In this document: positions 32,744 to 55,655 of the stretch, piece after piece
Position numbering within the stretch: the stretch's first letter is position 1
Layout of the letters: each line of letters starts with the position of its first letter
Assembly (NCBI GenBank): GCA_963576565.1
Contig: OY755040.1
Span: 83,113,321 to 83,177,320 of the forward strand
From: Aspidapion aeneum
Taxonomy: Eukaryota > Arthropoda > Insecta > Coleoptera > Brentidae
Reading direction: 5' to 3'
DNA length: 64,000 nt
The notes under the pieces: model-generated
What the model was told of the DNA's origin: nothing
The model's database searches: none
Seen by the model: the letters and a program-made list of their open reading frames with translations, nothing else
Position numbers and translations under genes: made by a program

Positions 32744-32891
32744 TAACAAACGTGGAATTTCGTACCCGTGAATTTAAAAATCAAACAAGTTTCGTGGCTA
32801 ATCGGGCAAAAAAGGAGTTTTTTGTTTCCCTCATATTTTTCCGTGGGTAGCCTGAAAGCTTAACCTCACGGGGGTCCAAGATCTAATGGAC

Positions 32892-32953
32892 ACCTAATAA
32901 GTGTTGACAGTTAACCGTTTCGTCCTTATGGGACTCCTCAGAACACTGCTGGT
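32892..32953 (-). ncRNA. Hammerhead ribozyme, type I (array 1, unit 1)
   Basis: Read on the minus strand, 5' to 3': stem I strand AGUGUU, core CUGAGGA (matches CUGANGA), stem II GUCC with loop CAUAA and GGAC, core GAA, stem III ACGG with loop UUAA and CUGU, cleavage triplet ending GUC, then stem I strand AACACU. Stem I is 6 perfect pairs, plus an outer ACC/GGU after an internal loop. Stem II has 4 pairs and stem III 4, one a G-U. The cut is predicted between plus-strand bases 32906 and 32905. Open stem I makes it type I, as in schistosome and cricket satellites and in retrozymes. Confidence 0.88.
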
Positions 32954-33405
32954 CAATGTGACAAATCTTGCGAAGTTAATCAGACGGTTTTGTCTCTAAT
33001 TAAATGTAATTAGTGAGAAAACTGTAGCAAGAAGCGCCATCCACCCAGATACGAGAGAAACAAAAAACCAAAAGCAGGCGAAACACTGCTAAACAATATC
33101 GATCAATGAAAAGATCGAATGCAAATAAAAGAAAACAACTATAGTCCGTGGCCTACGACAGCTCTTTGTCTTTCAGGCCGGATCAACACATATTGCATCT
33201 TTACCCGTCATCAAGACAGTGAGCGTCAATCAACGGAATTTTTAAACCAAATAATACTAACAAACGTGGAATTTCGTACCCGTGAAGTTAAAAATCAAAC
33301 AAGTTTCGTGGCTAATCGGGCAAAAAAAGACTTTTTGGTTTCCCTCATATTTTTCCGTGGGTAGCCTGAAAGCTTAACCTCACGGGGGTCCAAGATCTAA
33401 TGGAC

Positions 33406-33467
33406 ACCTAATAAGTGTTGATAGTTAACCGTTTCGTCCTTATGGGACTCCTCAGAACACTGCTGAT
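33406..33467 (-). ncRNA. Hammerhead ribozyme (array 1, unit 2, weakened)
   Basis: As in unit 1, except plus-strand C to T at 33422. The cleavage triplet becomes AUC, still allowed as NUH, and the second pair of stem III becomes a C-A mismatch. Activity is probably reduced. Confidence 0.78.
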
Positions 33468-33905
33468 CAATGTGACAAATCTTGCGAAGTTAATCAGACG
33501 GTTTTGTCTCTAATTAAATGTAATTAGTGAGAAAACTATAGCAAGAAGCGCCATCCACCCAGATACGAGAGAAACAAAAAACCAAAAGCAGGCGAAACAC
33601 TGCTAAACAATATCGATCAATGAAAAGATCGAATGCAAATAAAAGAAAACAACTATAGTCCGTGACCTACGACAGCTCTTTCAGGCCGGATCAACACATA
33701 TTGCATCTTTACCCGTCATCAAGACAGTGAGCGTCAATCAACGGAATTTTTAAGCCAAATAATACTAACAAACGCGGAATTTCGTACCCGTGAATTTAAA
33801 AATCAAACAAGTTTCGTGGCTAATCGGGCAAAAAAGGAGTTTTTTGTTTCCCTCATATTTTTTCGTGGGTAGCCTGAAAGCTTGACCTCACGGGGGTCCA
33901 AGATA

Positions 33906-34389
33906 TAGTTTAAACTTGAACTATTTGAGCTAGAATTACGCTATTATACGCTAAGATCTTTGACAAATATATTTTATAAAATATATTTTACAAAATGTTC
34001 CACAGTTTTTAGCCCATGTTTTTAAAAAACATTTATTTTGTTTGATAAAATTTAAACTAGAACACTAATCAAATTGTTATTAAAAAAATTTGAAGTGCAA
34101 TTAACAAGCCCTAAACAAAACTACGATGTTCAATAATAATAAAACTTACCTGTTTGCATCCAAAAGGTCCTGTTGTTCCATGTACACTTTGACACTGATC
34201 TACCGAACAATACGCAGTATTCCTTCGACAGAACATCTTCGCAATTGACAAAACTTTTAGGCGCACCTTATAACACAATAACGTGCAAACGAATAGCTGG
34301 CATCTTTCGAGTGAAAAGGCCTTATGATAGGAATGACCATACTGTAAGACACCTACACCACTGTGGTCTAGATATAAGAGCATTAATAA
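33906..34389. other. Spacer with a doubtful exon
   Basis: AT-rich. On the minus strand near 34153-34240 a frame reads MFCRRNTAYCSVDQCQSVHG and then GCKQ before a consensus donor (CAG then GTAAGT). The plus strand is also open at 34173-34439 (HLHHCGLDIRALIMTEG). See findings. Confidence 0.35.
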
Positions 34390-36862
34390 TGACAGAGGGT
34401 AAGAAAATGGGTATTCCGGATTCAGGTATAGTAGAGTAAATTTGTAAAATAAAGCTGCAAAAAGGGTATATTTTTTTATATTTGGCATAGTAGTACCTAA
34501 CACCAAAAGCTAAATTTTCATTCGAGGATCCCCAATTTTCCGGCCTCAGAATCCAAGATGGCGGCTGCCAAAGTTAAGAAAAAAAATGATTTCCTTGTTT
34601 TAAGAGTAGTGTGAAGTCTGCTCCAAAAGTTCCAGCTCCAGAAAGTTTTACCCAAGGACTGTACACAGAGAATAGGATGGTCCACTTCGCGAAATCTGTC
34701 AGACGGGTTTTAATACATCACAAAATACTCTACAACATAACCTCACTTTTTCGTAAAATATAAACAAAAACTAATTTTAAAACGTTTTTTTTTTTTAAAC
34801 CATGTCTCGCTGTAATGTAGAAGGATAATAATAATAATATACAATTTTATGTAAAAATATCATAGGTGTATCTTCTTCAGAAAATAGTTTACAGAACCCC
34901 TCATTCATCAATAAAATCAAATAAATTTTTTCATTGTCATTCATCAGCATTTGCTTAAAAAAACATGTTAATATTTGGAGTATCATCTAGAATATTTTGT
35001 GAATATTATTTTACTGCCCATTAGAATACCTATGCCTAGAATGAGGAGTGATCAGCTGCCCATAGTAGGTGTACAAAATTCATTTACAGGACTGTGCAGG
35101 ACACTTTATTGCCCGGCTTAAGCTATAATGCTTTTATCCAACATTTGGACAATTTTGATGCTGTCTAATCACTATATTATTCTACTTATCAATTTCTATT
35201 AGCAAATCTTCTTAAGCTTTTATGGTTTTTAAGAAGCAAATAACTTACCATTATCAGAAAGTAGCTTTTGTATATTATTTTTCAGGTTTTTTTTTCTGGC
35301 TTAAGCAGTATACATGCACCCTGCAATCCACTACAGGACCAAAAATTTATTGCTAATTCCTGTAGAACAATGCATACATTTCATTCCACTTATCACCTAG
35401 TAGTTCCACCTAGAGTGAGGGGCTCATCAATATGTAAGGACCTATACAATATCTCGACACTTTTAATGACCACTCAGGACTGAAAAGAATCAGGACCTGG
35501 CACAACCTTTAAGGACTAACAGGGTCAACAAAAATATGGTTTATTAAGTCCCTGTACAAAGTTTTTGCTATTGATCAGCAACAGGCCCAGAGGTATTTTT
35601 TGCACTTAAGAAATATTCACTTTTTGTCAGTAGCGGCTTGTGGTAGAACATGGCACATCAGTTGACCAGAAAAAACCAAGGACCATAAACTGACTGTCTT
35701 TGGTAAAAACAAGATATTGTTGGCAAAAATGTTCAGTTATCATGTCATTTGTACAGTATGAAACCTCATTCCACATGACATGATAAATTAAATGTTTTGT
35801 CAATACATTATACAGTTTTTTTTTTCAATTGATGTAGAGTGTTCTACTACTATGTTTAAAAGGAAATAACATGTGTACCTACTGAGGTGTGTATATTGCT
35901 CAACTTCACCTGACTAGCAGCAGTACTAGCTTTTTGTCCCTTATTATTTTAGTAATTAAAATCTCACTTTTTGTCCTGTTGAAGCAATTTGTAGTTATCA
36001 GTATTTTAACTTATTGCTTCATCTAAATGTTGCCTATAGGTTTGATTTTATGAAGTATATGTTAGTGCCCCCAAAGATATCATCTCAGGATACATGTTTA
36101 CATACTTACAGATAAAAAATAAAATGATTAAATAAAAGTTATTTTCCTATTTTAATTTCGACCAAATTTATTATATTTATTGATTCATAATACTAGAAAT
36201 TATCTAAGTAGATAAAGTCTTTAGGCATCTGTATACATTTTTAGAATTTTTTTGTTATATCACTCATAATAGCAAAAAAATAACAAACCTGTATACAATA
36301 TTAAGGGGGGTTATTGATTAGAAGCAATAAGGAATGGGTTACCATAAACATCAGGATAACAAATCCTGAATGTGATAAATGAAACATAAGAAGAATGAAC
36401 CATGGGGGCAAAAAATCTAGGACATGTAGGTATTTTACCTTTCTAAGAAATGGCCTAGTATTTTTTACCCAACTGCAAGACCTTTTTACTTCTCAGCATC
36501 ATTTTGTTTTTATTAAGTGACACTAGCTTCTAAAAAATTGAAAAAAATATAATAATATATTACATTTTAATAATATATATAAAAATATAAATATATCTTT
36601 AAAAAAACTGTGCTAAAGCAAAATCTCCATTGTGCAAAAACTAAAATTGATAAAATTGACAAAACAAAAACTTAGAACATTATAAATAAATTATTGGGGA
36701 GGCAAAGAAAACAGCTAAATTAAACTTAGAATAGATTCTGAAACTATTAAAGACACACACTAACAGTCGCAAACCAACTGAATACTCATTTTTGTACAAT
36801 AGCAGACTCCGATACAAAAAATTCAACAATAACTCTATCAATTTGCACAAAACAAAAAAAAA

Positions 36863-37035
36863 TCAGACTTTAACTAAGTAGTTTTCTTTTGTACCAACAT
36901 CAACCAGCAAATGTTCCTCGATTTCGATGCTTGTACCTGCAGTTGGCTCTTCAGGATCAACTTCTATTGGTTTCACTGATAGGTTTTGACTTGGCACAGA
37001 TGTATTCCTTAGTATTGTTTTAGAAGTACATAAGC
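36863..37035 (-). pseudogene. Exon-like 3' coding segment, left arm
   Basis: A run of T followed by GCAG gives an acceptor, then 56 open codons to TGA (EVDPEEPTAGTSIEIEEHLL and a VDVG tail). The mirrored copy is 39722-39865. It looks like the last coding exon of a gene carried in the arms. I do not recognise the protein and no upstream exon could be linked. Confidence 0.4.
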
Positions 37036-39721
37036 CTGCAATAAAAAAACATATATAAGGAACTTTTTTAAAAAAAGGTAGATTCTACAGTGTAAATTTT
37101 GTACTCTAGTACATATGGAATTCACAAAAAAACATGAGGATATAGAAATTGTCCAAGTATTATTTTGTTACGACATTTTTGTCAAAATTACAGTAGGTGT
37201 CCCAAATTAAGTTGGCACTATTGATAACTTCACTATTATTGGAGTCAAATTAGTACACTAGTAGCATTGTTTGAGCTAATTAAGATAATCAAAACAGAAA
37301 AACAATTAAATTGCACATTTACAGAAAAAAAATTAAAAAATATGTTTAATGTCTAATTTTTGTGGTTGTAGAGGTTTCTTCATAGACAAGGGGTGATCAG
37401 CTGCCCACAGTAGGTCTACAGGACTCCATAGTACACTACAATACACTACAGGATCAAGAATTAATTAAAGTCCTGTAGGATGGTGAACAAATTTGGTTCA
37501 GCTGATCACGCCTTGTTCATAGATGAACACACAGGCCTAAATAAATTCACATTCAGCTTAGTGTTACATTAAGTAATCTCTGGGGGGGGGGGGGTTACCT
37601 TTGTGTCATAGTCTTGGCCATAGGTGGTTACACTTTTGTGACATTTTTAACCTATTTCTTTATCAAAAAATCTGAAAAATGGTATGTTGTTGAGTTGTTT
37701 TTATGAGAACATTTTTTTTGTCAACATAAGGTATGTATGTATTCGAAAGTGGTGGCCAGCCCTACTGGACCTCCATGCACTGCGACCACATATGGATCTA
37801 TTGTGCCCATGTACCTATATACTGAGTTTGACTAAAGTGGCATATTTTTTTTTTCCACCCAGCACTTAAAAAACTCTGGAGATTACAACAATAAATGATT
37901 TAGGCTTAACACAACATAAGGTATACCTACACAACATATTTAATTTTTAATATATTTGTGGCTAGGAAATATGCTTGGAAATAGGCTCGGAAATAGGTAT
38001 TGTTATGTCAAAGTCACAAAAGTGTAACTGCCTATGGCAAGGACTATAAACTGAATGATTTTTTTATATTTTTCTTGAAAATGCGTTACGACAGGAGAAG
38101 GGCGGCGAAAAATCCTGAATTTTAGCCTTACATAATTAAAGAATGCCCTAGCAATTTATCTTGAAAAGGAATTTCGAAATCTGTTCTGTAGAAATGCTTT
38201 CGTGGGATCCATATTGTCTTTTCCACAACGCCTTAGCCACTCTTGCAAAATAGTCTTGGGAACAGTCATTGGAAGGTGGAAATTTAAAAAAACTCATAAA
38301 CGTAGAACTTCTAAGTTCGAATAGTTGGATTTACATCCAGAAACCGCACAGGATGCTCCTGGGATTTTGCGATTCCGAAAATTGTTTAAAATAACGAAAA
38401 TAACAATACAAAACCAAGATTCCACAAATTTTTTCCCTTAAAATAAATAAAAATGCGAAATGCACGGAAAAATTAACCACACTTTGGATTCGCGAAAAAA
38501 ATCAATAAGTTCGGTTGTCCTTTTTCATTTAATGTGAATAGAAAAGGAAAGACCACCCTATCAAACAGATCAAGGGTCTTTTAAGAAGGATGAGTAGGTT
38601 CATAGAAGGATGGCTCAACACCTTGAGGATTTTGTGACGTAGCGAAATTTGGAATATATGGGGCTTATGGAAGTGGACCGTCCTGTTCTCTGTGTACAGT
38701 CCTTGGTAAGCACCAAGGACAATTTTTTAAATCTATTTAAATCTATTTAGGGCCACATTATTTAATTATGTTAAGCTAAAATTCAGTATTTTTTAACGCC
38801 CTTCTCCTGTCGTAACGCATTTTCAAGAAAAATATAAAAAAATCATTCAGTGTATAGTCCTTGTCATAGGCAGTTACACTTTTGTGACTTTGACATGATA
38901 TAAACATACCTATTTCCGAGCCTATTTCCAAGCATATTTCCTAACCACAAATATATTAAAAATTAAATATGTCGTGTAGGTATAAAATTTAAGGTAAAAC
39001 TGTCACTGCCTCTTAATTAATAGATGCTGACTTTATGTTGACAAAAAAAATGTTCTGATAAAAACAACTCAACAGCATACCATTTTTCAGATTTTTTGAT
39101 AAAGAAATAGGTTGGAAATGTCAAAAGTGCAACTACCTATGGCCAAGACTATGACACAAAGGTAACCCTTCCCTCCCCAGAGATTACTTAATGTAACACT
39201 AAGCCGCATGTGAATTTATTTAGGCCTATGTGTGTATGTTTGATGGCCTGTGTGTTCATCTATAAACAAGGGGTGATCAGCTGAACCAAATTTGTACACC
39301 ATCCTACAGGACTTTAATTAATTCTTGATCTCATAGTATATTGTAGTGTCCTATGGAGTCCTGTAGAACTACTGTGGGCAGCTGATCACCCCTTGTCTAT
39401 GAAGAAACCTCTACAGCCACAAAAATTAGACATGAAACATTTTTTAATTTTTTTTCTGTAAATGTGCAATTTAATGGTTTTTCTGTTTTGACTATTTCAA
39501 TTAGCTCAAACAATGCTACTAGTGTACAAGGAACTGTAACACAGTTCCGTGCTAGTGTACTAATTTGACTCCAATAATAGTGAAGTTGTCAATAGTGCCA
39601 ACTTAATTTGGGACACCTACTGTAATTTTGACAAAAATGTAGAAATACTAGAGTACAAAATTTACACTGTAGAAACTACCTTTTTTTAAAAAAGTTCCTT
39701 ATATATGTTTTTTTATTACAG

Positions 39722-39865
39722 GCTTATGTACTTCCAAAAGAATACATCTGTGCCAAATCAAAACCAATGGAAGTTGATCCTCAAGAGCCAACTGCAGGTA
39801 CAAGCATTAAAATCGAGGAACATTTGCTGGTTGATGTTGGTAGAAAAAGAAAACTACTTAGTTAA
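39722..39865 (+). pseudogene. Exon-like 3' coding segment, right arm
   Basis: TTTTTTTATTACAG acceptor, then 47 open codons ending RKRKLLS-stop. The core EVDPQEPTAGTSIKIEEHLL matches the left arm. A deletion of about 23 bases near its start relative to the left arm changes the entry phase, so at least one copy is not functional. Confidence 0.4.
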
Positions 39866-40781
39866 ACTATGATTTTTTTTGTTTTGTGCAAATCGATCGA
39901 GTTTCTGTTAGAATTTTTTGTATCGGAGTCTGCTATTGTATCTACAAAAGATATATTTATATTTTTTATATATATTATTAAAATGTAATATATTATTATA
40001 TTTTTTCAATTTTTTAGAAGGTAGTGTCACTTAATAAAAACAATGATGCTTAGAAGTAAAAAGGGCTTGCAGTTGGGTAAAAAATACTTGGACATTTCTT
40101 AGAAAGGTAAAATACCTACATGTCCTAGATTTTTTGCCTTCATGCTACATTCTTCTTACATTTCATTTATCAAATTCAGGATTTGTTATCCTGATGTTTA
40201 TGGTAACCAATTCCTTATTGCTTCTAATCAATAACCCCCCTTAATAATGTATACAGGTTTGTTATTTTTTTGCTATTATGAGTGATATAACTAAAAAATT
40301 CTAAAAATGTTTACAGATGCCTAAAGACTATACATACTTATAAAATAAAATAACTTTTATTTAATCATTTTATTTTTTATCTTTAAATTGGTAAACATGT
40401 ATCCTGAGATGAAATCTTTGGGGCACTAACATATACCTCATAAAATCAAACCTATAGGCAACATTTAGATGAAGCAATAAGTTAAAATACTGATAACTAC
40501 AAATTGCTTCAACAGGATAAAAAATGAGATTTTAATTACCAAAATAATACGGGACAAAAAGGTAGTACTGCTGCTAGTTAGGTGAAGTTGAGCAATATAC
40601 ACACCTCAGTAGGTACACATGTTATTTCCTTTTAAACATAGCAAAACTGTATAATGTATTGACAAAACATTTATCATGTCATTTGGAATGAGTTTTCATA
40701 CTGTACAAATGACATCATAACTGAACATTTTTGCCAACAATAGCCAAGGACTGGCGGTTTATGGTCCTTGGTTTTTTCCAT

Positions 40782-41060
40782 TCAACTGATGTGCCATGTT
40801 CTACCACAAGCCGCTACTGACAAAAAGTGAATATTTCTTAAGTGCAAAAAATACCTCTGGGCCTGTTGCTGATCAATAGCAAAAACTTTGTACAGGGACT
40901 TAGCTAGGTAAACCATATTTTTGTTGACCCTGTTATTCCTTAAAAGGTCCTGCCAGGTCCTGATTCTTATCAGTCCCAAGTGGTCATTAAAAGTGTCGAG
41001 ATATTGTATAGTAGGTATAGGCAGTACTACTAGGTGATAAGTGGAATGAAATTGGTGCAT
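40782..41060 (-). pseudogene. Coding-like segment in the right arm (92 aa)
   Basis: A frame of 92 codons with a coherent end (FAIDQQQAQRYFLHLRNIHF, then CGRTWHIS). The mirrored plus-strand copy at 35368-35660 keeps the same end but has stops before it. Unknown family; may be chance. Confidence 0.25.
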
Positions 41061-42049
41061 TGTTCTTCAGGAATTAACAATAAATTTTTGGTCCTGTAGT
41101 GTATTGTAGGGTCATGTATACTGCTTAAGCTAGAATGCCACTATCTACCTATAAAATTTTCCTAGTTTTGATAAAAAAACCCGAGAAATAATACACAAAT
41201 GCTACTCTCTGATAACTGTAAGTTATTTGCTTCTTAAAAACCGTAAAAGCTTAAGAAGATTTGCTAATAAAAATTGATGTAGAATAATGTTGTGATTAAG
41301 ACGGCATCAAAAGATCAAAATTGTCCAAATGTTGGATAACGGCATTATAACTTATGCCAGGCAGTATAGTGTCCTGCACAGTCCTATAAATTAATTTTGT
41401 GCACCTACTATGGGCAGCTGATCACCCCTCATTCTAGGCATAGGTATTCCAATGGGGAGTAGAATACTATTAGATGATATTCCAAATATTAACATGTTTT
41501 TTTAAACAAATGCTGATGAATGACAATGAAAAAGTTTATTTGATGATTGAGGGGTTCTGTAAAGTATTTTCTGAAGAAGATACACCTATGATATTTTTGT
41601 ATAAAATTGTATATTATTATTATCCTTCTACATTACACCCAGAAATGGTTTTAAAAAAAACCGTTTTAAAATTAGTTTTTGTTTATATTTTACGAAAAAG
41701 TGAGGTTATGTCGTTAAGTATTTTGTGACGTATTGAAAACCGTCTGACAGATTTCGCGAAGTGGACCATCCTATTCTCTGTGTATAGTCCTTGGGTAAGC
41801 ACAGAGGCACCGGCGTGGGACGTAGCGCGTAGCCGCATTCGGATAAGTTTTTGGAGCTGGAAATTTTGGAGCAGACTTCACACTACTGTTTTAAGAGGAA
41901 TTAAATTAATTTTGATAAATTTACTTTTAATGGGATATACCCAATGTAAAAATGTAAAAAAAAATTACACCTGTCACTGCAAAACAAAATGGCGGCTATA
42001 TTAAAAAAAATCGTTTTTCTTCGATATTTTCATTATTTTTTGTGTAATA

Positions 42050-42661
42050 TGTCAAAAAAGTTGACATATGTCACGTGCCGGGTGATTTGAATAAATTGAC
42101 ATATTTTACTTAATAGCTATCTCCGTTAATATTGATCTAACAGAAACGTTTAAATCGGCAAAGTTACATAAGTTTTTCTAAATCATCAGAATCTTATGTC
42201 AAAAATGACATATGTCAAACACTTGTCAAACTATTGACATATGGTTTATTTTTTTAAATAAAACATCCTGTATATAATGTTTTTAATTGATAGGGCTCCT
42301 TTTTCTGATTTTAAAAATATATAATATGTTGACATTTAGTCCAGCCGTTGTTGAAATATTTGCATTTAGGTTATTAAAATGCAAATATTTCAATGACGGC
42401 TGGTCTAAACGAGTCTTATCAACTAAAAAAATTATATACAGGGTGTTTTATTTAAAAAAATAAACCATATGTCAAAAGTTTGACTAGTGTATGACATATG
42501 TCATTTTTGACATCAGATTCTGATGATTTAGAAAAAATTATTTAACTTTGCTTATTTAAACATTACTGTTAGATTAATATTAACGGAGCTATTAAGTAAA
42601 ATATGGTCAATTCAATCAAATCACCCCGTTCGTGACATATGTCAACTTTTTTGACATTTTT
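42050..42661. mobile_element. Hairpin MITE with TGACATATGTCA motifs
   Basis: Near-perfect fold-back centred at about 42365. The outer phrase TCAAAAAAGTTGACATATGT appears inverted at the right end, and an inner phrase TACAGGGTGTTTTATTT faces its own copy. It lies only in the right arm, so it arrived after the palindrome formed or was lost from the left arm. Confidence 0.6.
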
Positions 42662-43599
42662 AAAATATCTGTGTTTTGTTTACCGAGATGTCTTGTTTTT
42701 TCCAGTATTTTTTGTTAAATTTCGAAAAAATAAACAAAAATGTTTTTTTTTACTTTTTCGACCGCCATCTTTAAAAAATAAATAAATTATATTATTTTTG
42801 TACATTACGACTTAAAACTAATTAAGAGTAATATAAAACTACATATCTTGGTAAAAAAAATTACCAATCCAAGAAGATAATGTTGTTTTTATATTTTGAA
42901 CGCCGCCATCTTGATTAATAATAGACATGTGTCATTTATGATGAAATATTTAAAATCGGCGACATCTATTTAGTATAAATCGATATATTACACGGCAATA
43001 CTAGTTCTGTCCAACAAGAACAAAAAAATAACTTTTTTATCTAAACTTCGGCCGCCATCTTAAAATTTTTACTGTCAAATAGTAATTTTTTTTAAATTTT
43101 TACAAAACTTACTATTGATAAAATCAAAAAAAAATTTTTTTTTAATTTAATTTGGTCTACAGGTTATAAAGGTCTCTTTTATTTTTGACATATTAAACGC
43201 CATCTTTGTCTCGGTTGAGAAACTAATAACTTTGTTTCATTAGGTTTAAAGAGCTGGTCAGTGGCTTTACTATGAGGTATTAAAAATAAATATCGCGCAA
43301 AAAATAAAGAAAATATCGAAGAAAAACGATTTTTTTTTTACATTTTTGAATTAAGTAGGTCCCACTTAAAGTTTATCAAAATTAATTTAATTTGTCTTAA
43401 AACAGGGAATTTATTTTTTTTTCTTATCTTTGGCAGCCGCCATCTTTGATTCCGATGCCGGAAATCAGGGGATCCTCGATTGAAAATTTAGCTTTTGGTG
43501 TTAGCTACTACCATGCCAAATATAAAAAAATATACCCTTTTTGTAGCTTTTTATTTAAAAAACCGACAAATTTACTGTACTAGTAGCCAAACCGGTATT

Positions 43600-44728
43600 T
43601 AAAACCCATTTTTAAAAAACTTCTATCATGTAAATTAATTACTACTATTTTTATATAACATATTTATCAAAATAATTAACTTGGTATGTTCTAAGGTAAA
43701 TGAAGTAAGTAAAGTAAAATAAATAATTTATTTCAGAATGTGTGCCTCACCTATTGTTAAGAAAAATATTGTTAGCATAGTAATGTAATAATCAGGGTAT
43801 CAACATGATATCAACGTAAAAAAATCTGATACTTGATGAAGTAGATGAAACTTAGATAGTTTAAAATAGGTGTGCCTGTCGATACGTCAAAAGAAGTAGT
43901 GGCAGCATCATTACCTGGTTGGTATGTCATGGCGTATATCGGATATATAGATAACCAATCTTTAGAGGAGGTGTGTTGGGCCTTTGATCAAAAGATGATT
44001 TGACAGCATAGTATTTTTATATAAAAGAGGTTCATATGACACGTTTATCATAATGAATACCATGATATGTTCTAACGTAATTGTAGTCTCAATAAATAAT
44101 TGCTTTCAGGCGGTGTGCCTCATATTTAGTCAAGTAAAATTTAGACAGCATACTCATTTAAGAATAAGGACATTTTTATGACACCTATGTAATAGGTACA
44201 TTGTTCATATGTAATAGCTTTAAGGAGGCGTGACTTTCCTCTTTCCAGGTTTGGCTGAATATAGTTAACTATTATATTAGTAATAGCTTCATCTGACACT
44301 AATTAGATAAAAGCTGTTTTGATATTCAGTAAGGTAGTTTATCTAAAAAAAAGTGCAGTGTGAGGCAGGTGTTACATGACAGGGGATTAGGCAACCTGAG
44401 GCAGCATAAATAATTTAAAGGAAAAGTATAAATACACATTTTCTGCAAAAAATTTTTTGGTTTTTGATTATGTAGATTTACTTTCACCTGTATATTACAA
44501 AAAAAGCGTGTGCCTGTCCCCCACTCAGGTGAAGGGGTGGCAGCGTAATCATATGTTAAAAAATGGGTAAATATGACTCATTTACAACAAAAACTCAAAT
44601 GATACTAATTCATGCTGTTTAATGTTAATCTTCGTCAATGCAATTAATTTAATTAGCAACTTGGGTCCAAGTTTGGTTATTTGTTTCGGTAGGCACACCA
44701 GAGATCTGTGTCACGGGCTCCTGGTATA
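43600..44728. repeat. Right terminal inverted repeat of the 37.9-kb block
   Basis: Reversed, it matches the left arm: ATGATTACGCTGCCACCCCT against ATGATGATGCTGCCACACCT, with CTACATAATC downstream in both. GCAGCAT-centred subrepeats recur near 43913, 44005, 44145, 44400 and 44540. Confidence 0.75.
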
Positions 44729-44731
44729 CTT

Positions 44732-46995
44732 GGAAAAGATAATAGACGCACATATCAGAGGTGGCGCCTTAATGGCCCACCCGCTCAATGCAAACCAATA
44801 TGCACACCAAGCAGGAAAGCCAACAGGACTAGCTTTAAACAACCTTGATGGAAAAATCAAGAAAACCCTCGATGCAAAAGGCGTCGCAGTAGGCGTTTTT
44901 CTTGATATAGAAGGAGCATTTAACAATGCACTACCCAATTCCCTCTTTGAATCAGCGTGCGCCCGAGGAATAGAATCCACCATCACGGGATTCATCAGGT
45001 GCACACTCGAGAATCGAGTGATTGAAACAAATCTTAACAACGAGATGGTAAGTTTCAGAGCAGCTAGAGGCTGTCCACAAGGAGGAGTTTTGTTTCCCCC
45101 CCTGTGTTCTCTACTGATCGATGATCTTCTTGCCATCTTGGAATTGCTGGATGTAGAGGTATTGGGATACGCGGATGACGTAGGAGCAATCATTAGAGAC
45201 ATTCCAGAGAGTGAATTCTCTGGAAAGATTTTTTTATTTGTCAAACACACTGTGTTTATTGTATTACAATCTAGTGAGTAAGACTAATTAGCAATTTTGT
45301 TTTAACTTAATTTACTAGAAAAGTCAGATTTAAACTTAGGGTTCACTCAACAGTTCTCCCCGCTTTGTTTAGTCTGTAACTCGCAATTGTGTTGTGTTTA
45401 TAGCATGTTCTCTGGAAAGATACAAGAAGTAATAAACACGGTAAAATACTGGTGTGACAGGGAACAGATGTCTGTAAATGCCAGCAAAACAGTTATTATA
45501 CCGTTCACCCGTAAAAGGAAGCTTGATTTTCTGACTCCTCCGGAGCTTAACGGTGAAAGAATTCCATTTGCATCAGAGGCGAAATACCTAGGGGTCACTC
45601 TAGATAAAACTCTTACCTGGAATGCCCATATGGAAAAAGTAACCCGCAAGCCACACTGTCCTTATGGACGTGCAAAAGAATTTGCGGAAAAACCTGGGGC
45701 ACTAGCCCCTAATAAATGTATTGGCTGTATATAACAGTCATCAGACCAATGATTGCGTATGGCGCAATAGTCTGGTTCGAGAAGGGACATTAAAGAACCT
45801 CAAGGGCCAAACTAACCAGCTTACAACGACAAGCCAGTCTTGCCATATGTGGTGCAATGAGCTCTAGCCCATCGACTGCGCTTGAATGGTTACTAAACTT
45901 ACCTCCGCTTCACATTTTCTTAGAGGCGGAGGCACGAAGAGCAACATACAGAATAAGAGCCAACCATCAGGATGGTAGGGCAAACAAAGTGATATCAACA
46001 GCCCTAATAAGGGAACAAGAGTTGGATGCAACTCTAGGAATGATATCCGACGTCATGCCCAACACGGTGTACAGCAGAAAGCTATACAACATTATCCTCC
46101 CGGAGAGGGAGGACTGGTTAAAGAACAGGACCAATTTTTCAAATAACGATAGCTTCTGATATACCGACACATCCAAAATGCCTTCGGGCGTTGGATCTGG
46201 AGTTGTTAGTATTCAAGAAAAACATTATTCAAGAGAGACTAAACATAGTCTCGGCCAATTGGCTACTATATTTCAGGCCGAACTCGTAGCCATTGATCTG
46301 TGTGCCCGGTGGATTACTGACCACGAATGGACCAACAGGACAATAAAAATCTTCTCCGACAGTCAGGCAGCCTTAAGAGCGCTTGATTCCTATACGGTCT
46401 CATCGAGAACCGTGAGATGCTGTAAAGATTCGCTGAATGCGCTTGGTAGCGCTAACAATGTATCATTAGTATGGATACCAGGGCATTCTGGGCACGAGGG
46501 AAATGAGGCCGCAGACCTAGCAGCGAGAGAAGCGGCATCTGCCGAATTTTTCGGCCCCGAGCCAGCTCTGGGGATATCATACAATGCTGCTAAATCAACC
46601 ATATTAAAATGGATGGAGAATAGCTTTCAACAATACTGGATAAATATACCAGAACTGGCTCACTCTAAAGAGTTCATTAAAGGACCTTGTAGAAACAGAG
46701 CCAGGAACATTATTGGACTTACCAGACAGGAGATACGTATAGTGACTGGTCTTTTTACGGGTCACTGTCGACTGAGAGTACCCATGCACAGAATGGGACT
46801 AACAGAAGAGACCGAATGTAGACTCTGTATGGAGGATGACGAAACAGTCAGACATGTACTGTGCGAATGTCCGGCTATTGCACGTTTACATCAGAATACT
46901 TTCGGTAAACCTCAGATCGACTCAGAAGATCTGAACAGTGTCTCACCCAAACTGATAGCTGGCCTTTTTGGAGGATTAGGCATACAGTGGTCAGG
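44732..46995 (+). pseudogene. R1/LOA-like LINE ORF2, 3' half: RT and RNase H
   Basis: It continues the RT cut at 6795: GVFLDIEGAFNNA (motif A), GCPQGGVLFPPL (motif B), LGYADDVGAI (catalytic YADD) and KYLGVTLDKTLTW. A 178-bp insert lies after YADD. Frame breaks follow near 45730 and 46160. The RNase H has YTDTSK, AELVAIDLCARW, FSDSQAALRAL and WIPGHSGHEGNEAADLA, holding Asp, Glu, Asp and Asp of the active site. A C-terminal Cys/His cluster (CRLC...HVLCECP) closes it. Codons after GIQWSG come from the BEL-3 LTR, stop at 47005. No 3' UTR or tail remains. Confidence 0.9.
45230..45407 (-). mobile_element. 178-bp retroposed insert with 14-bp target duplication
   Basis: TTCTCTGGAAAGAT occurs at 45216-45229 and 45408-45421. 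On the minus strand the insert ends AATAAACACAGTGTGTTTGA then CAAATAAAAAA, a poly-A tail with AATAAA signals. A 14-bp duplication and a tail mean LINE-driven retroposition. The source (SINE, truncated LINE or mRNA 3' end) is unknown. Confidence 0.82.
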
Positions 46996-47370
46996 CACGA
47001 AATAATTAAGGTCCATAGGTTAATTGCTGTTACCACACAACGGAAATCAGAAACAAAGTACTCACTAGTTTGCAGCCAATTTCTCCACGTTCCAGGGGCC
47101 CCTTTCTGGATCTAATGATGGCACCACGTAGCTGAAGGGCTGAAGTTTCCAGTTCTATGCTTCAATACACCAAAATCGAGCACTTTCAAGTGTAGAAATT
47201 TGTAATAGTTGGAGTAAGAAATTAACACGCCATTTTCTCGAGGCGGTAGAAAAGGATCTCCCTGATTCTTGGTGCGCATGTCCAATGCGCGGAAAATGTA
47301 CTCTGTCCGTCATCCAATTGTGTGGTTTTAAAATTTTAAAAACAACCGCGAAATTTAGCGGGAGCTAACA
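46996..47370 (-). repeat. BEL-3 3' LTR, truncated (375 bp)
   Basis: Corresponds to 53142-53516 of the 5' LTR. The missing 91 bases are the end that would carry CTGCGGGCA. Confidence 0.93.
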
Positions 47371-47605
47371 TAACTGCCCTCCAAAACACACAATTTTAGA
47401 ATATCAACCGGACAGATATAGATATAAGAAAAAATGATCGACCGATACATATAACTGAATGGAAAACAGATACGTATCGTAAGTTCATTTAGAGATAACG
47501 AAAACCCGAAAAACGCAAAACAAACAAACAAAAAATTCAAAGAAAAATAAATATAAAGAAAAACCTATTGTAATACCCGGTAATAGGAAAAAATTAAAAT
47601 TACTT

Positions 47606-50600
47606 TTAATTCGGCAAGAGGCACAGTTTTACAACTGGCCGCCCGTAGCCGTTCGTACCGTCGCTACACGCACTTGACCGTCTCCGCCGGGATGCAATTC
47701 GAGAACTCGAACGATTGGCCATTTCAAAGGTGATTGGCTGTGATCACTCGTTATGATAACCAAATCATTTAATTTGATATTTGGGGACGAATCAGCCCAC
47801 TTGTGTCGCTGTTGTAGCGTATGCAAATACTCTACAGAATACCGTTTCCAAAAATCATTATGTAGTTTTTGGATTAGTTGCCATCTCGAGAGCCGATTTA
47901 GGGGAACCTCGGACAAATCTGACTCCGGAATTTCTGAATTAAGGGGTTCAAGGGTCAAAAAATGCCCAGGGGTAAGAGGTTGAAGATCGTGTGGGTCTGA
48001 AGAGGCAGGAGATAAAGGGCGACTATTAAGTACGGCTTCTATGCGACATGTAAGGGTGGACATTTCCATGATGGACAACTTCTGGTCGCCGACTACTCGA
48101 ACAAAGTGAGTTTTAAAACTTTTGACGCCAGCTTCTGCCAGGCCATTGAAATGTGGACTCAGAGGGGGTCCCAGATGCCAACGAATAGAAAGTCTGGTGG
48201 ACGCACTTCTTGCGTAATCAAGTAATTGGTTACGAAACCTTATAAAATTACTGCCCTGATCTGACCAGCATTGCGTCACGCTTCCACGTCTGGAAATGAA
48301 TCGATGGAATGCACCTACAAACCCTTCGGTGGACAGTTCCATGGTTAATTCCAAATGCACGCAATGTGTGGCCGTACAGACAAACACACAGTCATACGAT
48401 TTGAAAGCTTTACAACCACGGTAACGATGAGGAATCACAAAGAAAGGTCCACAAAAGTCGATAGCTACACTCGAAAAAGGTTTAAGTTGATTGATTCGAT
48501 GAGCGGGAAGAGAACTCATTATGGGCGGTCTATAGGGTTTAGGGTTGATTCTAAAACATTGCAAGCATGGTGGATATGGTTCTTTGAATTGCCCGTCTGG
48601 CAGATAATATCCAAAATTGCTGTAAAAGCAGATTATGTAATGTTTTAAACCCAGGATGAAGGTATTGTCTATGAGTGGACTCGATAAGAAGAGTAGTTAA
48701 ACGATGGTTACTCGAAAGTAAGACGGGGTGTTTTGCAGAATAAGACAACAGGTCAGATTTTTGTAATCTGCCACCGACTCTAATGATATTATTTTCATCA
48801 AGAAAAGGTGAAAGTTTTCGAAAAGGTTTCGGTATTGGTTTATCCTTAGATAACGCGGAAAAAAGCTCAGAAAAACAAGAACCTTGAACGCGTTTGATAA
48901 GAAGGTATAACGCACTTTGAAACTCACCGGTGGTAGGAAAAACAATATTTTCAAAAATAATTTTTTGGTCCGGTGGATTAGTGGGTTTTTGATAGGAATG
49001 GTTTTGAAAAAGGTTAACTATTCGAAGGACATAACAAATGATACATTGAATTTTTGATATAGATGAATATTTGATAAGAAGCTGATCTAAGAAGTTAACG
49101 TCAATTATCGCATTGCAACAGACCTTTGGCTTTTCCTCCAGATTAATATCTCCGAAATCAATCGGCATTTTTGATTTATGAAAATCGGGCCATTCGTTTT
49201 CGGCAGACCACAAACGGTGCATTCCACTACATGTCATGTGAAATGAGCTGTGAAGGGGTGGCCCCTCGTGACGCAATATCGGCTGCATTTAAAGCAGAAG
49301 GAATGTAGCGCCATGAGTTTGAGGGAATGATTTCTTGGATTCTACTGACTCGATTTCCAACAAAGGTTTGCCAGCGATTAGGAGGGGATGAAAGCCAGTG
49401 CAATACAACTTGCGAATCGCAGAAAGTAACGATATTTGTAAAAGTTATTTTTCCTTCATAGCTAGACAAGACGAAATCAATTAATTCGCTTAAAAGAAAT
49501 TCGCCTAGGAGTTCTAGCCTAGCCAAAGTTGGTGACTTTATAGGCGCGACCCTAGATTTTGCAGATATGAGAGAAACAGATATATTGTTTTCCTCTTCTA
49601 CACGAAAATATACGAGGACTGCGTAGCCTCGAATTGAAGCGTCACAGAAGCCGATGATTTGACAGGTATTAGTTTTAGACAGTTTGATTTGTCGGGGTAA
49701 TTGAAAATTGGAAAGAAGCGGGAATTCAGAACGAAGTTTGTTCCAACAGTGATGATAGAAGAATCTGGTTCTTCGTCCCAGCCTATTTTCGATATCCACA
49801 ACTGTTGCAAAATAAATTTTGCTTGTAGCAACAAGGGACAAAGAAAACCTAAGCGATCAAAGATTCTTCCTATGATAGATAAAATAAAACATTTAGTTGG
49901 GGGTTTGTCCTTCATTCGGCATTGATAAGAAAAAATGTCGTTTTTTGGATGCCATTGAAGGCCTAAAACTTTGATAAAGTGTGGTTCATCCTTGTCAAAA
50001 GAGAGAGGCATTTGACGATCGGATTCTGGCAATGTTGCCAATAACTCAGGACAATTGCTTGCCCATTTTTTAAGTTTAAGTAAGAATCATTGAGTTCCGT
50101 TTGAAGGGAAAGGGGCTTTAGAAAGCGAAGGGCTAGTTCCCAAGATATCGTCGATGTAAATTGACGTTTTTAGAACAGTACTAGCCATAGGAAAACGTTC
50201 CTTTTCTCTCTCTGTCAGCTCATTTAAGGTACGCATGGCTAGAAAAGGTGAGCATGTCATGCCAAAAGTGACAGTAGAAAGTTCCCACACTGAAAGTGGG
50301 TCCTGTGGAGAAAACCTCCACAATATCCTTTGATAAGGACGGTGATAAGGATTGATAAGGACTTGACGGAACATCTGTTTGATATCAGCAATGTAGGCAA
50401 TAGGATTAAAACGAAACGTAAGGAGTAAAGAAGCAATATCCTTTTGAAGTTTCGGTCCAGATAACAACGTGTCATTGAGACTAATATTCTTTGGGGTGAC
50501 TGCCGAACAATCCCAGACTACCCTTAATTTTGTACTTAAGCTTTCCGGCTTTAGTACGCAATGATGTGCCAAAAAACAAGATACGTCGACTTTTGGTTGA

Positions 50601-52697
50601 CTAGACAAAACTAGACTCATGTGATTAGAATCGATATAGTCTTGCATGAAACTAGAATAGGCAGTGTACAGATCAGGATTTTTGAGTAATCTATTTTCTA
50701 GAAGTAAAAATCTACGATAAGCTTGCGGATAAGCATTTCCTAGGTCAGGGTTTATTTTATCTTTAAACGGAAGATCTACCATGAATCTACCGCTCGGTTG
50801 TCGTACGACACTCGCAGTAAATATTGATTCCGCTTGTTTTTCCTCCTTTGATAAGATTTGTTTTTTAGGCAAATGTTCGATTTCCCAAAACCTAGGGATA
50901 ATGACCTCTAAAGGAGGTGAATGACTCGTTAAAAAACAACTGGTTCGTTCCGTAAGATTACCTACTTTGTCAACTTTTCCCATGACGACCCAGCCAAAGA
51001 TGGTTTCAAGGGCTGAAGGTTGCCCTATTTGTCCAAGAACCCTGCCCTCCTTGAATATCTGTGCGAATAGCTCGCAACCAATAACTAGGTCCACAGGTCT
51101 AGATTTGAAATAAGCTGGGTCGGCAAGTTTAAGGTTTTCCAAGTGTTTCCACTGATTATCGTTCAAAGTGAATGTAGGCATATTGGAACATAGTTGTGGA
51201 ACAACAATTGCTTCGAAATTAAGTAAAGGAGGGACCTGTCCTTGTGGCTTAATGTGACATTGAACGAGCCCTTTGGAAGTAAAAGAAGACATTTGATTTA
51301 ATCCGAATATTTCAGTGGCGTAACTTCGCCTAGGAACATTAAGACGCTGAATACACTTTTCACTGATGAATCCTGTCTGTGATCCAGAATCAAGCAGTGC
51401 CCTTACAGGTGGTGTGTGAATGACAGGACTAGTATCTTGGCTTCCAGACTCTTTATTAGTTTCTAAGATATGAGTTAAAGTGTGGTGCCTTTTACTATTG
51501 CAAGTCCTGCATGAATATTTTGATTTGCACGTATCTACCCCATGCGAGGGATGAAAACACGCTAGACATAATTTTTTCTCCTTGACGAAAGATAGGCGAT
51601 CGATAGGTGAGAGGTCAAGAAATGTTTGACATTTCGAAAGCACGTGACCCTGATTACACCGGAAACATTTTATTCCCGTACTTGAATTAGTTGAGGTGCC
51701 AGCCAGTCCTATAAAAGGCGAATTGGATGATTTATAGGTAGGCTTTTGCCCAAACTGATTTGGCATAGAATTTGATTTTTGATAGGTAGGCACCTTTTTG
51801 GGTGCTGTTGATTGAGGAAGTGATTCCAAAACTTTACATCTTTTTTCTAGAAATTGAAAAAGTGACTGAAAAGTGGTAATTTCGGTATTAGTATTGGCGT
51901 GACTCATTTCGAAATTTGAACGCGTCGGAATATCCAATTTTTCTAACAGAATGAAAAAAATAATAAAGTCCCAACTGTCAACGTCAAAGCTAAGTGATTT
52001 TAAAATTTCTAGGGATTCTGAAAAGGTGTCAATTAAATTACGCAATTCTTTAGCTGACTCGTTTTTTAATGTAGAGTTCATAATTGTGCTCAAAGCATCA
52101 TTTGCGAGGTCTCGCTTGTTTTGATATCTATTGACTAATTTGTCGTAAGCAATTTTATAATTTTGATCAGACAAGCTAATCCCTGATATCAATTTTAAAG
52201 GCTCATCCTCGAGATACGAAAATAAATATTGAAGTTTTCGGACGTTACTTAGACTTTGATTTTGATCTATAATGTTATTAAAAAGATCGAAAAAGCTTGG
52301 CCATATTTTTTTTATCACCTCGAAATATGGGAATACCTAACTCTTTGAGTTTTGGAGTTTCAGATTCGTTTTGACGAACATATGATCGCGAAAAGGATGG
52401 AGCCTCAACCGGAAATATTTCAGAGTAAACCCCTTTACACGCATAAAAATATTTACGAGCTTCTGAAAGGATCGCATCTTGCGTTTTAAACTCCTCGTCG
52501 TCCGAGTCGTCTATCATGATAATGACATCATTATGTGCCAGCATGCATTTATCGAAGGTTTCATCCAAATCGGAATACCTCACTTGAAACTCGTTTCTCG
52601 CTTTTGCGTCCGTTGCCGCGGTTTGTGAAAACACATAACACTCGGTGATCGCAGATAAAAAACCCTTGCGTTTTTGCACGGCTTTTTTGATAGACAT
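47606..52697 (-). pseudogene. BEL-3 gag-pol polyprotein, frameshifted
   Basis: Start ATG 52697 (MSIKKAVQKRKGF). Gag (DUF1759-type) shifts frame near 52300. The frame 52318-50087 has Cys/His clusters (CFRCNQGHVLSKC, CLACFHPSH), protease LLDSGSQTGFI, and RT with SIYIDDILG. A shift with loss follows the YIDD box at about 50095. Further shifts lie near 49750, at 49230 (TGG to TAG plus a 5-base loss), near 48560, and a 10-base loss near 47640. The integrase core retains VAIDFCGPF, WSDQGSNF and HFNGLAEAGVKS. Normal product is a single Gag-Pol. Domains are in the usual order but the copy is dead. Confidence 0.93.
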
Positions 52698-53050
52698 GAT
52701 TTTACCTTTGAAATAGAAAAATGACGATTTGTCGAAAATATGCACTAATTTATCGCAATTGATGAAAAATGTTTTAGTATCGAAATGGTATGGAACAAAT
52801 CTAATCACAGAAATCGTGCTTGTTTGTTTTGATTGCTTCTCGATGTTTGTTTACTGAAATGACCACGCGGTAGACCCTGCGTTACCATAGCAGCGGACCG
52901 AAAACAGGAGAACTGCGCCGAAACCGAAGGTCGAACGATTGGCAAATTCAAGGTTGTGTGGTCGCCGTGTGAAAATGTGAAAATGGCTGCCTTAAAATAC
53001 CGTCGAATGGATTTAATTTACTTATTCGGTTCGAAGGAACACTTTATATA

Positions 53051-53516
53051 TGCCCGCAGATAGAAAAACGATAACTGCAGTGGACTGTATATATTTTAGT
53101 AAATGAAAGCGCGAACAAACATAAATATGTTGATACGAAATCACGAAATAATTAAGGTCCATAGGTTAATTGCTGTTACCACACAACGGAAATCAGAAAC
53201 AAAGTACTCACTAGTTTGCAGCCAATTTCTCCACGTTCCAGGGGCCCCTTTCTGGATCTAATGATGGCACCACGTAGCTAAAGGGCTGAAGTTTCCAGTT
53301 CTATGCTTCAGTACACCAAAATCGAGCACTTTCAAGTGTAGAAATTTGTAATAGTTGGAGAAAGAGATTAACACGCCATTTTCTCGAGGCGGTAGAAAAG
53401 GATCTCCCTGATTCTTGGTGCGCATGTCCAATGCGCGGAAAATGTACTCTGTCCGTCATCCAATTGTGTGGTTTTAAAATTTTAAAAACAACCGCGACAT
53501 TTAGCGGGAGCTAACA
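53051..53516 (-). repeat. BEL-3 5' LTR (466 bp)
   Basis: Complete TG...CA LTR. It sets the inner boundary for the family. No convincing primer binding site is visible just inside it. Confidence 0.93.
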
Positions 53517-54114
53517 CATAAGTTTAAAAATAATTTAAACTTATTTAAAAAAAATTTATTTGATGAATAAAATATAAAAATTTAATAAAAAAAGGTAGAT
53601 TCAAAATGGAGTTTGAGTTGCTAGGCGTGTGTTCTCATTTTGAAGGTAGGTAGGCAGCTATTTTTAGACTTGACCGCAGTCAAGGTCAAATAAAAGTGAA
53701 AGGCATGTATGGTAAAATTGAACTTGAATTAACCACAAAAAATCCAAAAATCTGTCAAACCGACATTCTACATGAAGAAAACATCTCTTGTGTCTAATTT
53801 TGGAAAAACATGACTAATATATTTTACATAAAAATATACCTGCTATACTATGGATAACCCAAGAGAAGTATTCAACATTTTAAAGATTTAAAAATGACCA
53901 AAAGCAACACACAATATTTTCAATAAATTTAGTCTAACGACCAAGCCAAAATTACCTTTTTTAGCAACAAAAAAAATACTGTATGGCCCATGTCATTTGT
54001 AAAAACTTTTACTTAAAAATTTTACTAAGTCATTGGTGGTTAACCCAAAACAACTTAACCAAATTTCCACATTCTCAGCAGAATGTAGCTTATATGCTTA
54101 AATAAATTAAGACT
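53517..54114. other. Spacer, nothing recognised
   Basis: AT-rich, no coding frame or repeat end that I can support. Confidence 0.4.
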
Positions 54115-54231
54115 CAAAAATCAAACAAGTTTCGTGGCTAATCGGGCAAAAAGGAGTTTTTTTGTTTTCCTTATATTTTTCCGTGGGTAGCCTGAAAGCT
54201 AAACCTCACGGGGGTCCAAGATCTAATGGAC

Positions 54232-54293
54232 ACCTAATAAGTGTTGACAGTTAACCGTTTCGTCCTTATGGGACTCCTCAGAACACTGCTGGT
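54232..54293 (-). ncRNA. Hammerhead ribozyme (array 2, unit 1)
   Basis: All core positions and stems as in array 1 unit 1 (stem I at 54240-54245 and 54282-54287), triplet GUC. Confidence 0.87.
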
Positions 54294-54745
54294 CGATGTG
54301 ACAAATCTTGCGAAGTTAATCAGACGGTTTTGTCTCTAATTAAATGTAATTAGTGAGAAAACTATAGCAAGAAGCGCCATCCACCCAGATACGAGAGAAA
54401 CAAAAAACCAAAAGCAGGCGAAATACTGCTAAACAAGATCGATCAATGAAAAGATCGAATGCAAATAAAAGAAAACAACTATAGTCCGTGACCTACGACA
54501 GCTCTTTGTCTTTCAGGCCGGATCAACACAGATTGCATTTTTACCCGTCTTCAAGACAGTGAGCGTCAATCAACGGAATTTTTAAGCCAAATAATACTAA
54601 CAAACGTGGAATTTCGTACCCGTGAATTTAAAAATCAAACAAGTTTCGTGGCTAATCGGGCAAAAAGGAGTTTTTTTGTTTCCCTTATATTTTTCCGTGG
54701 GTAGCCTGAAAGCTAAACCTCACGGGGGTCCAAGATCTAATGGAC

Positions 54746-54807
54746 ACCTAATAAGTGTTGACAGTTAACCGTTTCGTCCTTATGGGACTCCTCAGAACAC
54801 TGCTGGT
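54746..54807 (-). ncRNA. Hammerhead ribozyme (array 2, unit 2)
   Basis: Complete motif, core at 54754-54801, triplet GUC. Confidence 0.87.
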
Positions 54808-55265
54808 CGATGTGACAAATCTTGCGAAGTTAATCAGACGGTTTTGTCTCTAATTAAATGTAATTAGTGAGCGAACTATAGCAAGAGGCGCCATCTACCG
54901 AGATACGAGAGAAACAAAAAAACCAAAATGAGGCGAAAGAAAACACTGCTATACAATATCGATCAATGAAAAGATCGAATGCAAATAAAAGAAAACAACT
55001 ATAGTCCGTGACCTACGACAGCTCTTTGTCTTTCAGGCCGGATCAACGCAGATTGCATTTTTACCCGTCTTCAAGACAGTGAGCGTCAATCAACGGAATT
55101 TTTATGCCAAATAATACTAACAAACGTGGAATTTCGTACCTGTGAATTTAAAAATCAAACAAGTTTCGTGGCTAATCGGGCAAAAAGGAGTTTTTTTGTT
55201 TCCCTTATATTTTTCCGTGGGTAGCCAGAAAGCTAAACCGAACGAAGGTCCAAGATCTAATGGAC

Positions 55266-55327
55266 ACCTAATAAGTGTTGACAGTTAACCGTTTCGTCCT
55301 TATGGGACTCCTCAGAACACTGCTGGT
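55266..55327 (-). ncRNA. Hammerhead ribozyme (array 2, unit 3)
   Basis: Complete motif, core at 55274-55321, triplet GUC. With the previous copy it would release a 520-nt RNA. Confidence 0.87.
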
Positions 55328-55655
55328 CGATGTGACAAATCTTGCGAAGTTAATCAGACGGTTTTGTCTCTAATTAAATGTAATTAGTGAGCGAACTATA
55401 GCAAGAGGCGCCATCTACCGAGATACGAGAGAAACAAAAAAACCAAAAGCAGGCGAAAGAAAACACTGCTATACAATATCGATCAATGAAAAGATCGAAT
55501 GCAAATAAAAGAAAACAACTATAGTCCGTGACCTACGACAGCTCTTTGTCTTTCAGGCCGGATCAACACAGATTGCATTTTTACCCGTCTTCAAGACAGT
55601 GAGCGTCAATCAACGGAATTTTTAAGCCAAATAATACTAACAAACGTGGAATTTC

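What the first reader, a model, noticed from the sequence alone, without database searches (positions are those of the whole stretch)
32744..55655. A 510-520-bp satellite that encodes a hammerhead ribozyme in every unit
Five minus-strand copies (near 32.9, 33.4, 54.2, 54.8 and 55.3 kb) show all conserved hammerhead parts in the right order: CUGANGA core, GAA core, a NUH cleavage triplet and three pairing stems, with stem I strands exactly flanking core and cut site. Unit-length tandem repeats with a type I hammerhead are known from schistosomes, cave crickets and animal retrozymes, where RNA monomers self-cleave and may circularise. Here the arrays lie inside nested transposons at two places 21 kb apart, which suggests spread by copying, perhaps as an RNA. 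I do not know this family from any named repeat.
Basis: partly seen in the sequence, partly recalled or inferred. Interest (0 to 1): 0.92.

Follow-up and report, generated by a model that had tools for sequence, protein, structure and literature searches.

The report
Self-cutting RNA repeat in an insect
Two short runs of a roughly 515-base non-coding repeat, probably in an insect genome, carry a hammerhead, a small RNA that can cut itself, once per unit; this looks like one more, unusually long, member of a known group of animal mobile repeats called retrozymes.

Summary
On the minus strand there are two tandem arrays, 33904-32744 (about 2.25 units) and 55655-54116 (about 3 units), of a 508-520-bp AT-rich unit. 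Five hammerhead motifs lie at one phase. Four are intact and identical over 48 nt; the fifth (33461-33414) has one broken stem III pair. Rfam's type I hammerhead matches the four at 24.7 bits, below its curated cut-off of 34, but core, cut site and stems are right. Two arrays whose flanks do not match each other suggest a dispersed family. The closest known kind is the metazoan non-LTR retrozyme; by unit length, the pDo500 satellite of cave crickets. Unusual here: a long unit (described retrozyme RNAs are ~170-400 nt) and a self-complementary stem III. A two-copy double hammerhead is the best predicted dimer fold for the bare motif, but not once 7 or more flanking bases are added. Against the simplest retrozyme story: no target-site duplication above chance, and mosaic units in array 2, which argue against birth from one RNA circle followed only by point mutation. 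Copy number, transcription and cleavage were not testable; the genome search did not complete. Verdict: real, a new member of a known kind, of modest interest.

The parts
32744..33904 (-). Array 1: about 2.25 units (508 and 514 bp full units, 5'-partial unit, short 3' stub)
54116..55655 (-). Array 2: three units (520, 520, 500 bp)
32900..32947 (-). Hammerhead, intact; predicted cut between 32906 and 32905
   Evidence: RF00163 24.7 bits
33414..33461 (-). Hammerhead with one broken stem III pair (AUC triplet)
   Evidence: not reported as type I by Rfam
54240..54287 (-). Hammerhead, intact; predicted cut between 54246 and 54245
   Evidence: RF00163 24.7 bits
54754..54801 (-). Hammerhead, intact; predicted cut between 54760 and 54759
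   Evidence: RF00163 24.7 bits
55274..55321 (-). Hammerhead, intact; predicted cut between 55280 and 55279
   Evidence: RF00163 24.7 bits
54760..55279 (-). Predicted released RNA monomer, 520 nt
   Evidence: distance between cut sites
54246..54759 (-). Predicted released RNA monomer, 514 nt
   Evidence: distance between cut sites

Best explanation
The repeat is a non-autonomous, non-coding retrozyme-type element, probably of an insect. Read-through transcription of the minus strand would give a multimeric RNA. The hammerheads cut it once per unit after GUC, alone or, possibly, as pairs joined through the self-complementary stem III. The released 514-520-nt RNA would be closed into a circle by a host RNA ligase. 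Circles would be copied by a reverse transcriptase of another element (the published guess is a Penelope-like element or LINE) into head-to-tail DNA that inserts elsewhere. Shown here: tandem units, the motif in each, and two arrays whose flanks do not match each other. Inferred: transcription, cleavage, circle formation, reverse transcription and insertion.
For: Intact type I core, cut triplet and three stems in 4 of 5 units at one phase. Units are AT-rich (GC 0.39-0.40). Of the 4 ORFs of 60 aa or more lying wholly inside the arrays, all on the opposite strand, the 3 scanned have no Pfam domain. Self-BLAST shows no match of 80 nt or more (E up to 1e-10) between the flanks of the two arrays. 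Units within an array are 97.2-98.1% identical, between arrays 94.5-96.8%. All 4 array ends lie away from the cut site (unit positions 24, 162, 145 and 130), as a circle without ends would allow and linear cleaved monomers would not. Published metazoan retrozymes match in tandem type I hammerheads, low GC, and dimers to large multimers (PMC7229834). For the bare 48-nt motif, two copies fold as a double hammerhead, -29.4 kcal/mol against 2 x -9.1, with a 12-bp stem III; 0 of 5 in-silico tetraloop replacements give that fold.
Against: No target-site duplication above chance at either array (array 1: 26% of 3000 random pairs score as high; array 2: 68%). Units are longer than the 170-400 nt described. 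In array 2, unit 3 agrees with array 1 at all 6 informative gap-free columns in positions 183-263 and with its own array at the 9 elsewhere (chance of contiguity 0.002-0.003; 0.02 in an earlier count that merged neighbouring sites and missed one column). All 5 gap-free private differences of unit 1 fall within 20 nt. So array 2 was not made from one circle followed only by point mutation. The Rfam score is under the curated cut-off. The lowest-energy fold of the 62-nt motif is a competing hairpin, -13.4 against -9.8 for the hammerhead. The double hammerhead is the best dimer fold only with 0, 2 or 4 flanking bases; with 7, 12, 20 or 30 it is not, and from 12 on the competing hairpin forms instead. 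The hammerhead is not significantly more conserved than the rest of the unit (1 of 48 against 37 of 472 columns variable, p 0.24).
Confidence: 0.58

Rival explanations
1. Ordinary satellite DNA that spreads at the DNA level: unequal exchange, gene conversion and reinsertion of excised circular DNA. The hammerhead may still cut transcripts but plays no part in the spread.
For: Mosaic units and clustered private differences in array 2; no target-site duplication above chance; array 2 begins and ends within 15 nt of the same unit position (145 and 130), as insertion of an opened circle of whole units would give.
Against: Two short arrays with non-matching flanks rather than a long block. An intact ribozyme in 4 of 5 units would need another reason. 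Exchange can also act after an RNA-mediated insertion, or by template switching.
Confidence: 0.28
2. The arrays are leftover terminal repeats (pLTRs) of a Penelope-like element, whose pLTRs carry type I hammerheads and lie in tandem.
For: Penelope-like elements are tandem and carry hammerheads, and in one of them genomic ends coincide with start sites of reverse transcription (PMC11167929, passages). Three of 4 array ends here fall in a 32-nt stretch of the unit (post hoc p 0.04).
Against: Penelope-like hammerheads are described as minimal, lacking helix III or loop contacts (PMC7761336, passages); this one has four stem III pairs and a 6-bp stem I. No GIY-YIG domain was reported in the 27 ORFs scanned; the four reverse transcriptase (RVT_1) hits, two of them under Pfam's cut-off, lie in what I take for BEL/Pao, Ty3-like and LINE-like fragments. 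Not all ORFs were scanned.
Confidence: 0.08
3. A chance or dead hammerhead-like sequence carried by a repeat, with no cleavage.
For: Rfam score below the gathering cut-off; a competing hairpin has lower energy, and 3 of 3 circular monomers fold with the motif in it; one of 5 copies is damaged; no significant extra conservation.
Against: Rfam's E of 0.13 counts 4227 families, so for this one family it is about 3e-5 (my division). All core bases and three stems are right in 4 of 5 copies. In pDo500, 113 of the 146 sequences judged potentially active likewise do not have the hammerhead as lowest-energy fold (PMC2837043).
Confidence: 0.06

Closest known systems
Metazoan non-LTR retrozymes (Cervera and de la Pena 2020, PMC7229834)
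   Same: Tandem low-GC repeats with a type I hammerhead per unit, from dimers upward
   Different: 508-520-bp unit against ~170-400-nt RNAs (150-450-bp repeats) described; no target-site duplication above chance; no transcript evidence
pDo500 satellite of Dolichopoda cave crickets (PMC2837043)
   Same: Unit of 463-505 bp in the paper's data set, one hammerhead per unit, a double-hammerhead form proposed, a G-U pair in stem III, competing folds
   Different: pDo500 is about 5% of the D. schiavazzii genome; here only two short arrays are seen. Sequences could not be compared: no pDo500 sequence was available to the tools
Penelope-like elements with hammerheads
   Same: Tandem units, type I hammerhead
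   Different: No such ORF or GIY-YIG domain found in the ORFs scanned, and a fuller hammerhead here
Plant LTR retrozymes (as described in PMC7229834)
   Same: Non-autonomous repeats cut by hammerheads and thought to spread as RNA circles
   Different: Those have type III hammerheads, LTRs, PBS and PPT, and 4-bp duplications. No LTRs are seen here; PBS and PPT were not searched; 4-5-bp matches at the ends exist if the boundary is let slide by 14 bases, which says nothing

Membership tests
Type I hammerhead ribozyme | CUGANGA...GAA core, NUH cut site and three stems, with stem I open | tested here: met
   4 of 5 units; Rfam score 24.7, under the cut-off of 34
Type I hammerhead ribozyme | Self-cleavage | not testable with these tools
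   needs in vitro transcription
Type I hammerhead ribozyme | Loop I-loop II tertiary contact | not tested
   Pentaloop CAUAA and a possible stem I internal loop (AGC/UAUUA) are seen by eye only
Metazoan non-LTR retrozyme | Tandem repeats with a type I hammerhead per unit | tested here: met
   intact in 4 of 5
Metazoan non-LTR retrozyme | Low GC (<45-50%) | tested here: met
   0.39-0.40 for the five full or near-full units
Metazoan non-LTR retrozyme | Unit of about 150-450 bp | tested here: not met
   508-520 bp. The same paper speaks of circles from 150 to >1000 nt from hammerhead-flanked repeats, so I read this as a described range, not a strict rule
Metazoan non-LTR retrozyme | No LTR, PBS or PPT | tested here: inconclusive
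   No terminal repeat flanking the arrays in self-BLAST; PBS and PPT not searched
Metazoan non-LTR retrozyme | Target-site duplications, when present, longer than 4 bp | tested here: inconclusive
   None above chance at 2 of 2 arrays
Metazoan non-LTR retrozyme | Expressed as linear and circular RNA | not testable with these tools
   no RNA data
pDo500 satellite family | Sequence relatedness to pDo500 | not testable with these tools
   no eukaryotic DNA collection held
Penelope-like element | RT plus GIY-YIG ORF between tandem pLTRs | tested here: inconclusive
   no GIY-YIG among the 27 ORFs scanned, but only 10 of 23 ORFs of 60 aa or more near the arrays were scanned

The most novel reading that the evidence does not exclude
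An insect retrozyme whose ribozyme works mainly as a double hammerhead. The 12-nt self-complementary stem III would let two neighbouring units cut each other, so that tandem copies are processed while single units and closed circles stay uncut, held in the competing hairpin. That would link tandem arrangement to processing and explain how circles survive, and would be unusual in an invertebrate.
Probability: 0.17. Interest if true: 0.5.

Novelty: new member of a known kind. Interest (0 to 1): 0.35.

Why it matters
It adds a long-unit hammerhead repeat, probably from an insect, to a group whose mobilising enzyme and circle protection are still unknown. The self-complementary stem III and the competing hairpin give a direct test: compare cleavage of one-unit and two-unit transcripts. 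[quoted passage not shown] A ribozyme that needs a partner, or that sits in a rival hairpin, would be a simple answer.

Tried and rejected
Search of the window's own genome: the genome search 'own' gave no answer in 7 tries, so copy number, dispersal and host name stay unknown.

Exact 25-nt core pattern: 0 matches in viral contigs and in genome contigs, a prokaryote collection. BLAST of the unit against these 120 gave 38 rows in 18 loci, none longer than 47 nt; 30 of 38 begin at or near the core and 8 are chance-level matches elsewhere (E 0.28-0.98). Two loci with several motifs (L008, L074) were tested for tandem units and have no direct repeats of 40 nt or more, so they are not tandem relatives.

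Type III reading of the damaged unit (24.3 bits, cut-off 48.5): rejected because its stem I does not abut the core (my reading of the alignment). Pol III promoter boxes: none on the hammerhead strand of the one unit scanned; the box A matches on the other strand are at chance level (88 of 300 shuffles have one). Fold of one monomer as a circle: z -2.8 on the hammerhead strand but -2.5 on the opposite one (60 shuffles each), so the extra pairing is not specific to one strand. Double hammerhead as the general dimer fold: held for the bare motif, failed at 4 of 7 flank lengths.

Host: the BEL/Pao protein's best named hits are insects, with many beetles (120 of 1636 listed, 37-56% identity); beetle is a guess.

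In print: searches combined hammerhead or retrozyme with satellite, insect, beetle, Penelope-like or dimer terms, and no listed title or abstract start names such a repeat in this host group apart from pDo500. One search (3 of 5 terms) returned papers without the word retrozyme and says nothing. Supplements could not be read and most subscription papers are not held, so I do not claim that it is unpublished.
Full report
Observation. Two arrays on the minus strand were mapped from the sequence and by BLAST of a doubled unit: 33904-32744 and 55655-54116. Full units are 508 and 514 bp in array 1 and 520, 520 and 500 bp (cut short at the array end) in array 2, with GC 0.39-0.40. No other copy lies in the 64 kb at E up to 1e-3, apart from short inverted self-matches inside the arrays.

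Hammerhead. A descriptor scan found 4 complete motifs, all in the arrays: 6-bp stem I, 4-bp stem II with loop CAUAA, stem III and a GUC cut site. The scan counts five stem III pairs, but only four can form around the UUAA loop. One of 60 Markov-simulated windows held matches. Rfam had no hit at gathering level. With E-values, type I hammerhead scores 24.7 bits at 4 of 5 units (E 0.0026-0.0033 on the arrays alone). The fifth unit has a stem III pair broken by G to A, and Rfam gives it only a weak type III match, which I reject because stem I does not abut the core.

Fold. On its own the 62-nt motif prefers a competing hairpin (-13.4 against -9.8 kcal/mol), and in 3 of 3 circular monomers folded the motif lies in that hairpin. 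The strand ACGGUUAACUGU is self-complementary, with two G-U pairs. Two bare 48-nt motifs together fold as the classical double hammerhead, with both stem I helices between copies, a 12-bp joint stem III and intact cores: -29.4 against 2 x -9.1 kcal/mol. In 0 of 5 in-silico loop replacements was that the best dimer fold, and for the damaged unit the dimer is weaker (-22.4; mixed pair -25.9). A further control limits this: with 0, 2 and 4 flanking bases on each side the double hammerhead is the best dimer fold, with 7, 12, 20 and 30 it is not. With 7 a 12-bp pairing remains without the cores; from 12 on each motif folds into the competing hairpin. So the double form is possible but not predicted in long RNA, and plain energy models do not score the hammerhead's own core contacts.

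Array history. Units within an array are 97.2-98.1% identical and between arrays 94.5-96.8%. Array 2 unit 3 carries a block (columns 183-263; 6 substitutions, and the same gaps) like array 1, flanked by 9 columns like its own array (chance of contiguity 0.002-0.003). Unit 1 has all 5 of its gap-free private substitutions within 20 nt (0 of 200,000 random draws). Exchange or template switching among variants must have occurred. The array ends lie at unit positions 24 and 162 (array 1) and 145 and 130 (array 2), counted from the cut. None is at the cut site, and three lie within 32 nt (post hoc p 0.04). No target-site duplication exceeds chance.

Surroundings. The window is rich in transposons: BEL/Pao-like proteins (19.5-24.8 kb; 47.6-52.9 kb, with a repeat pair 46996-47370 and 53142-53516 at 98.7% that I take for its LTRs; and fragments), LINE-like fragments (5.6-6.3 and 44.6-47.0 kb) and a Ty3-like fragment (56.2-60.1 kb) (the names are my reading of the Pfam domains). 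The BEL/Pao protein's best named relatives are insects, many of them beetles. Near the arrays 10 of 23 ORFs of 60 aa or more were scanned; none gave a convincing domain (one sub-threshold MYND hit at 34114-34509). Neither array was shown to sit inside a named element.

Known kinds. I read parts 1-4 of 6 of PMC7229834, parts 1-2 of 5 of PMC2837043, passages of PMC7761336 and PMC11167929 and one passage of PMC3088659. Metazoan retrozymes are tandem, low-GC type I hammerhead repeats giving ~170-400-nt linear and circular RNAs. pDo500 is a ~500-bp cricket satellite with single and double hammerhead forms. The present repeat fits the first in tandem arrangement, ribozyme type and GC, not in size; target-site duplication and absence of LTR signals were inconclusive. 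It fits the second in size and style. Sequence relatedness to either could not be tested.

Verdict. A real hammerhead repeat, most likely a long-unit retrozyme-type element. The motif and tandem arrangement are shown; RNA cleavage, RNA circle and retro-insertion are inferred.

Noticed in passing
34429-43582: Large inverted repeat: arms 34429-38145 and 38756-43582, pieces 81-92% alike, about 600 bp between them; 6 of the 23 ORFs of 60 aa or more in it were scanned without a domain above Pfam's cut-off.
   Followed up: partly
42118-42591: A shorter hairpin (arms of 185 nt, 90%) in the right arm of the large inverted repeat; its tip (42341-42403) is matched weakly by Rfam on both strands as mir-15 (29.7 and 27.5 bits, cut-off 57.3), probably by shape alone.
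   Followed up: no
18338-18617, 26183-26918, 30352-31055: Repeats dense in the palindrome TACGTA/GTACGTAC at three places, in direct and inverted orientation.
   Followed up: no
7399-8497: Diverged tandem array with a period of about 129-142 bp.
   Followed up: no
14867-15137 and about 31180-31930: 16-bp tandem repeat AAAAGGTCGAAAGTAC; GTCGAAA-like words recur in the second region (and reading).
   Followed up: no
L008, L011, L074: Viral contigs with three hammerhead-like motifs each on one strand; L008 and L074 have no direct repeats of 40 nt or more, L011 was not tested.
   Followed up: partly
upstream of each hammerhead, e.g. 33504-33497: AACCGU, some 65 nt upstream of stem III, is complementary to its 5' strand (ACGGUU); by eye it is present in all five units and could hide the ribozyme (alignment, reading).
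   Followed up: no
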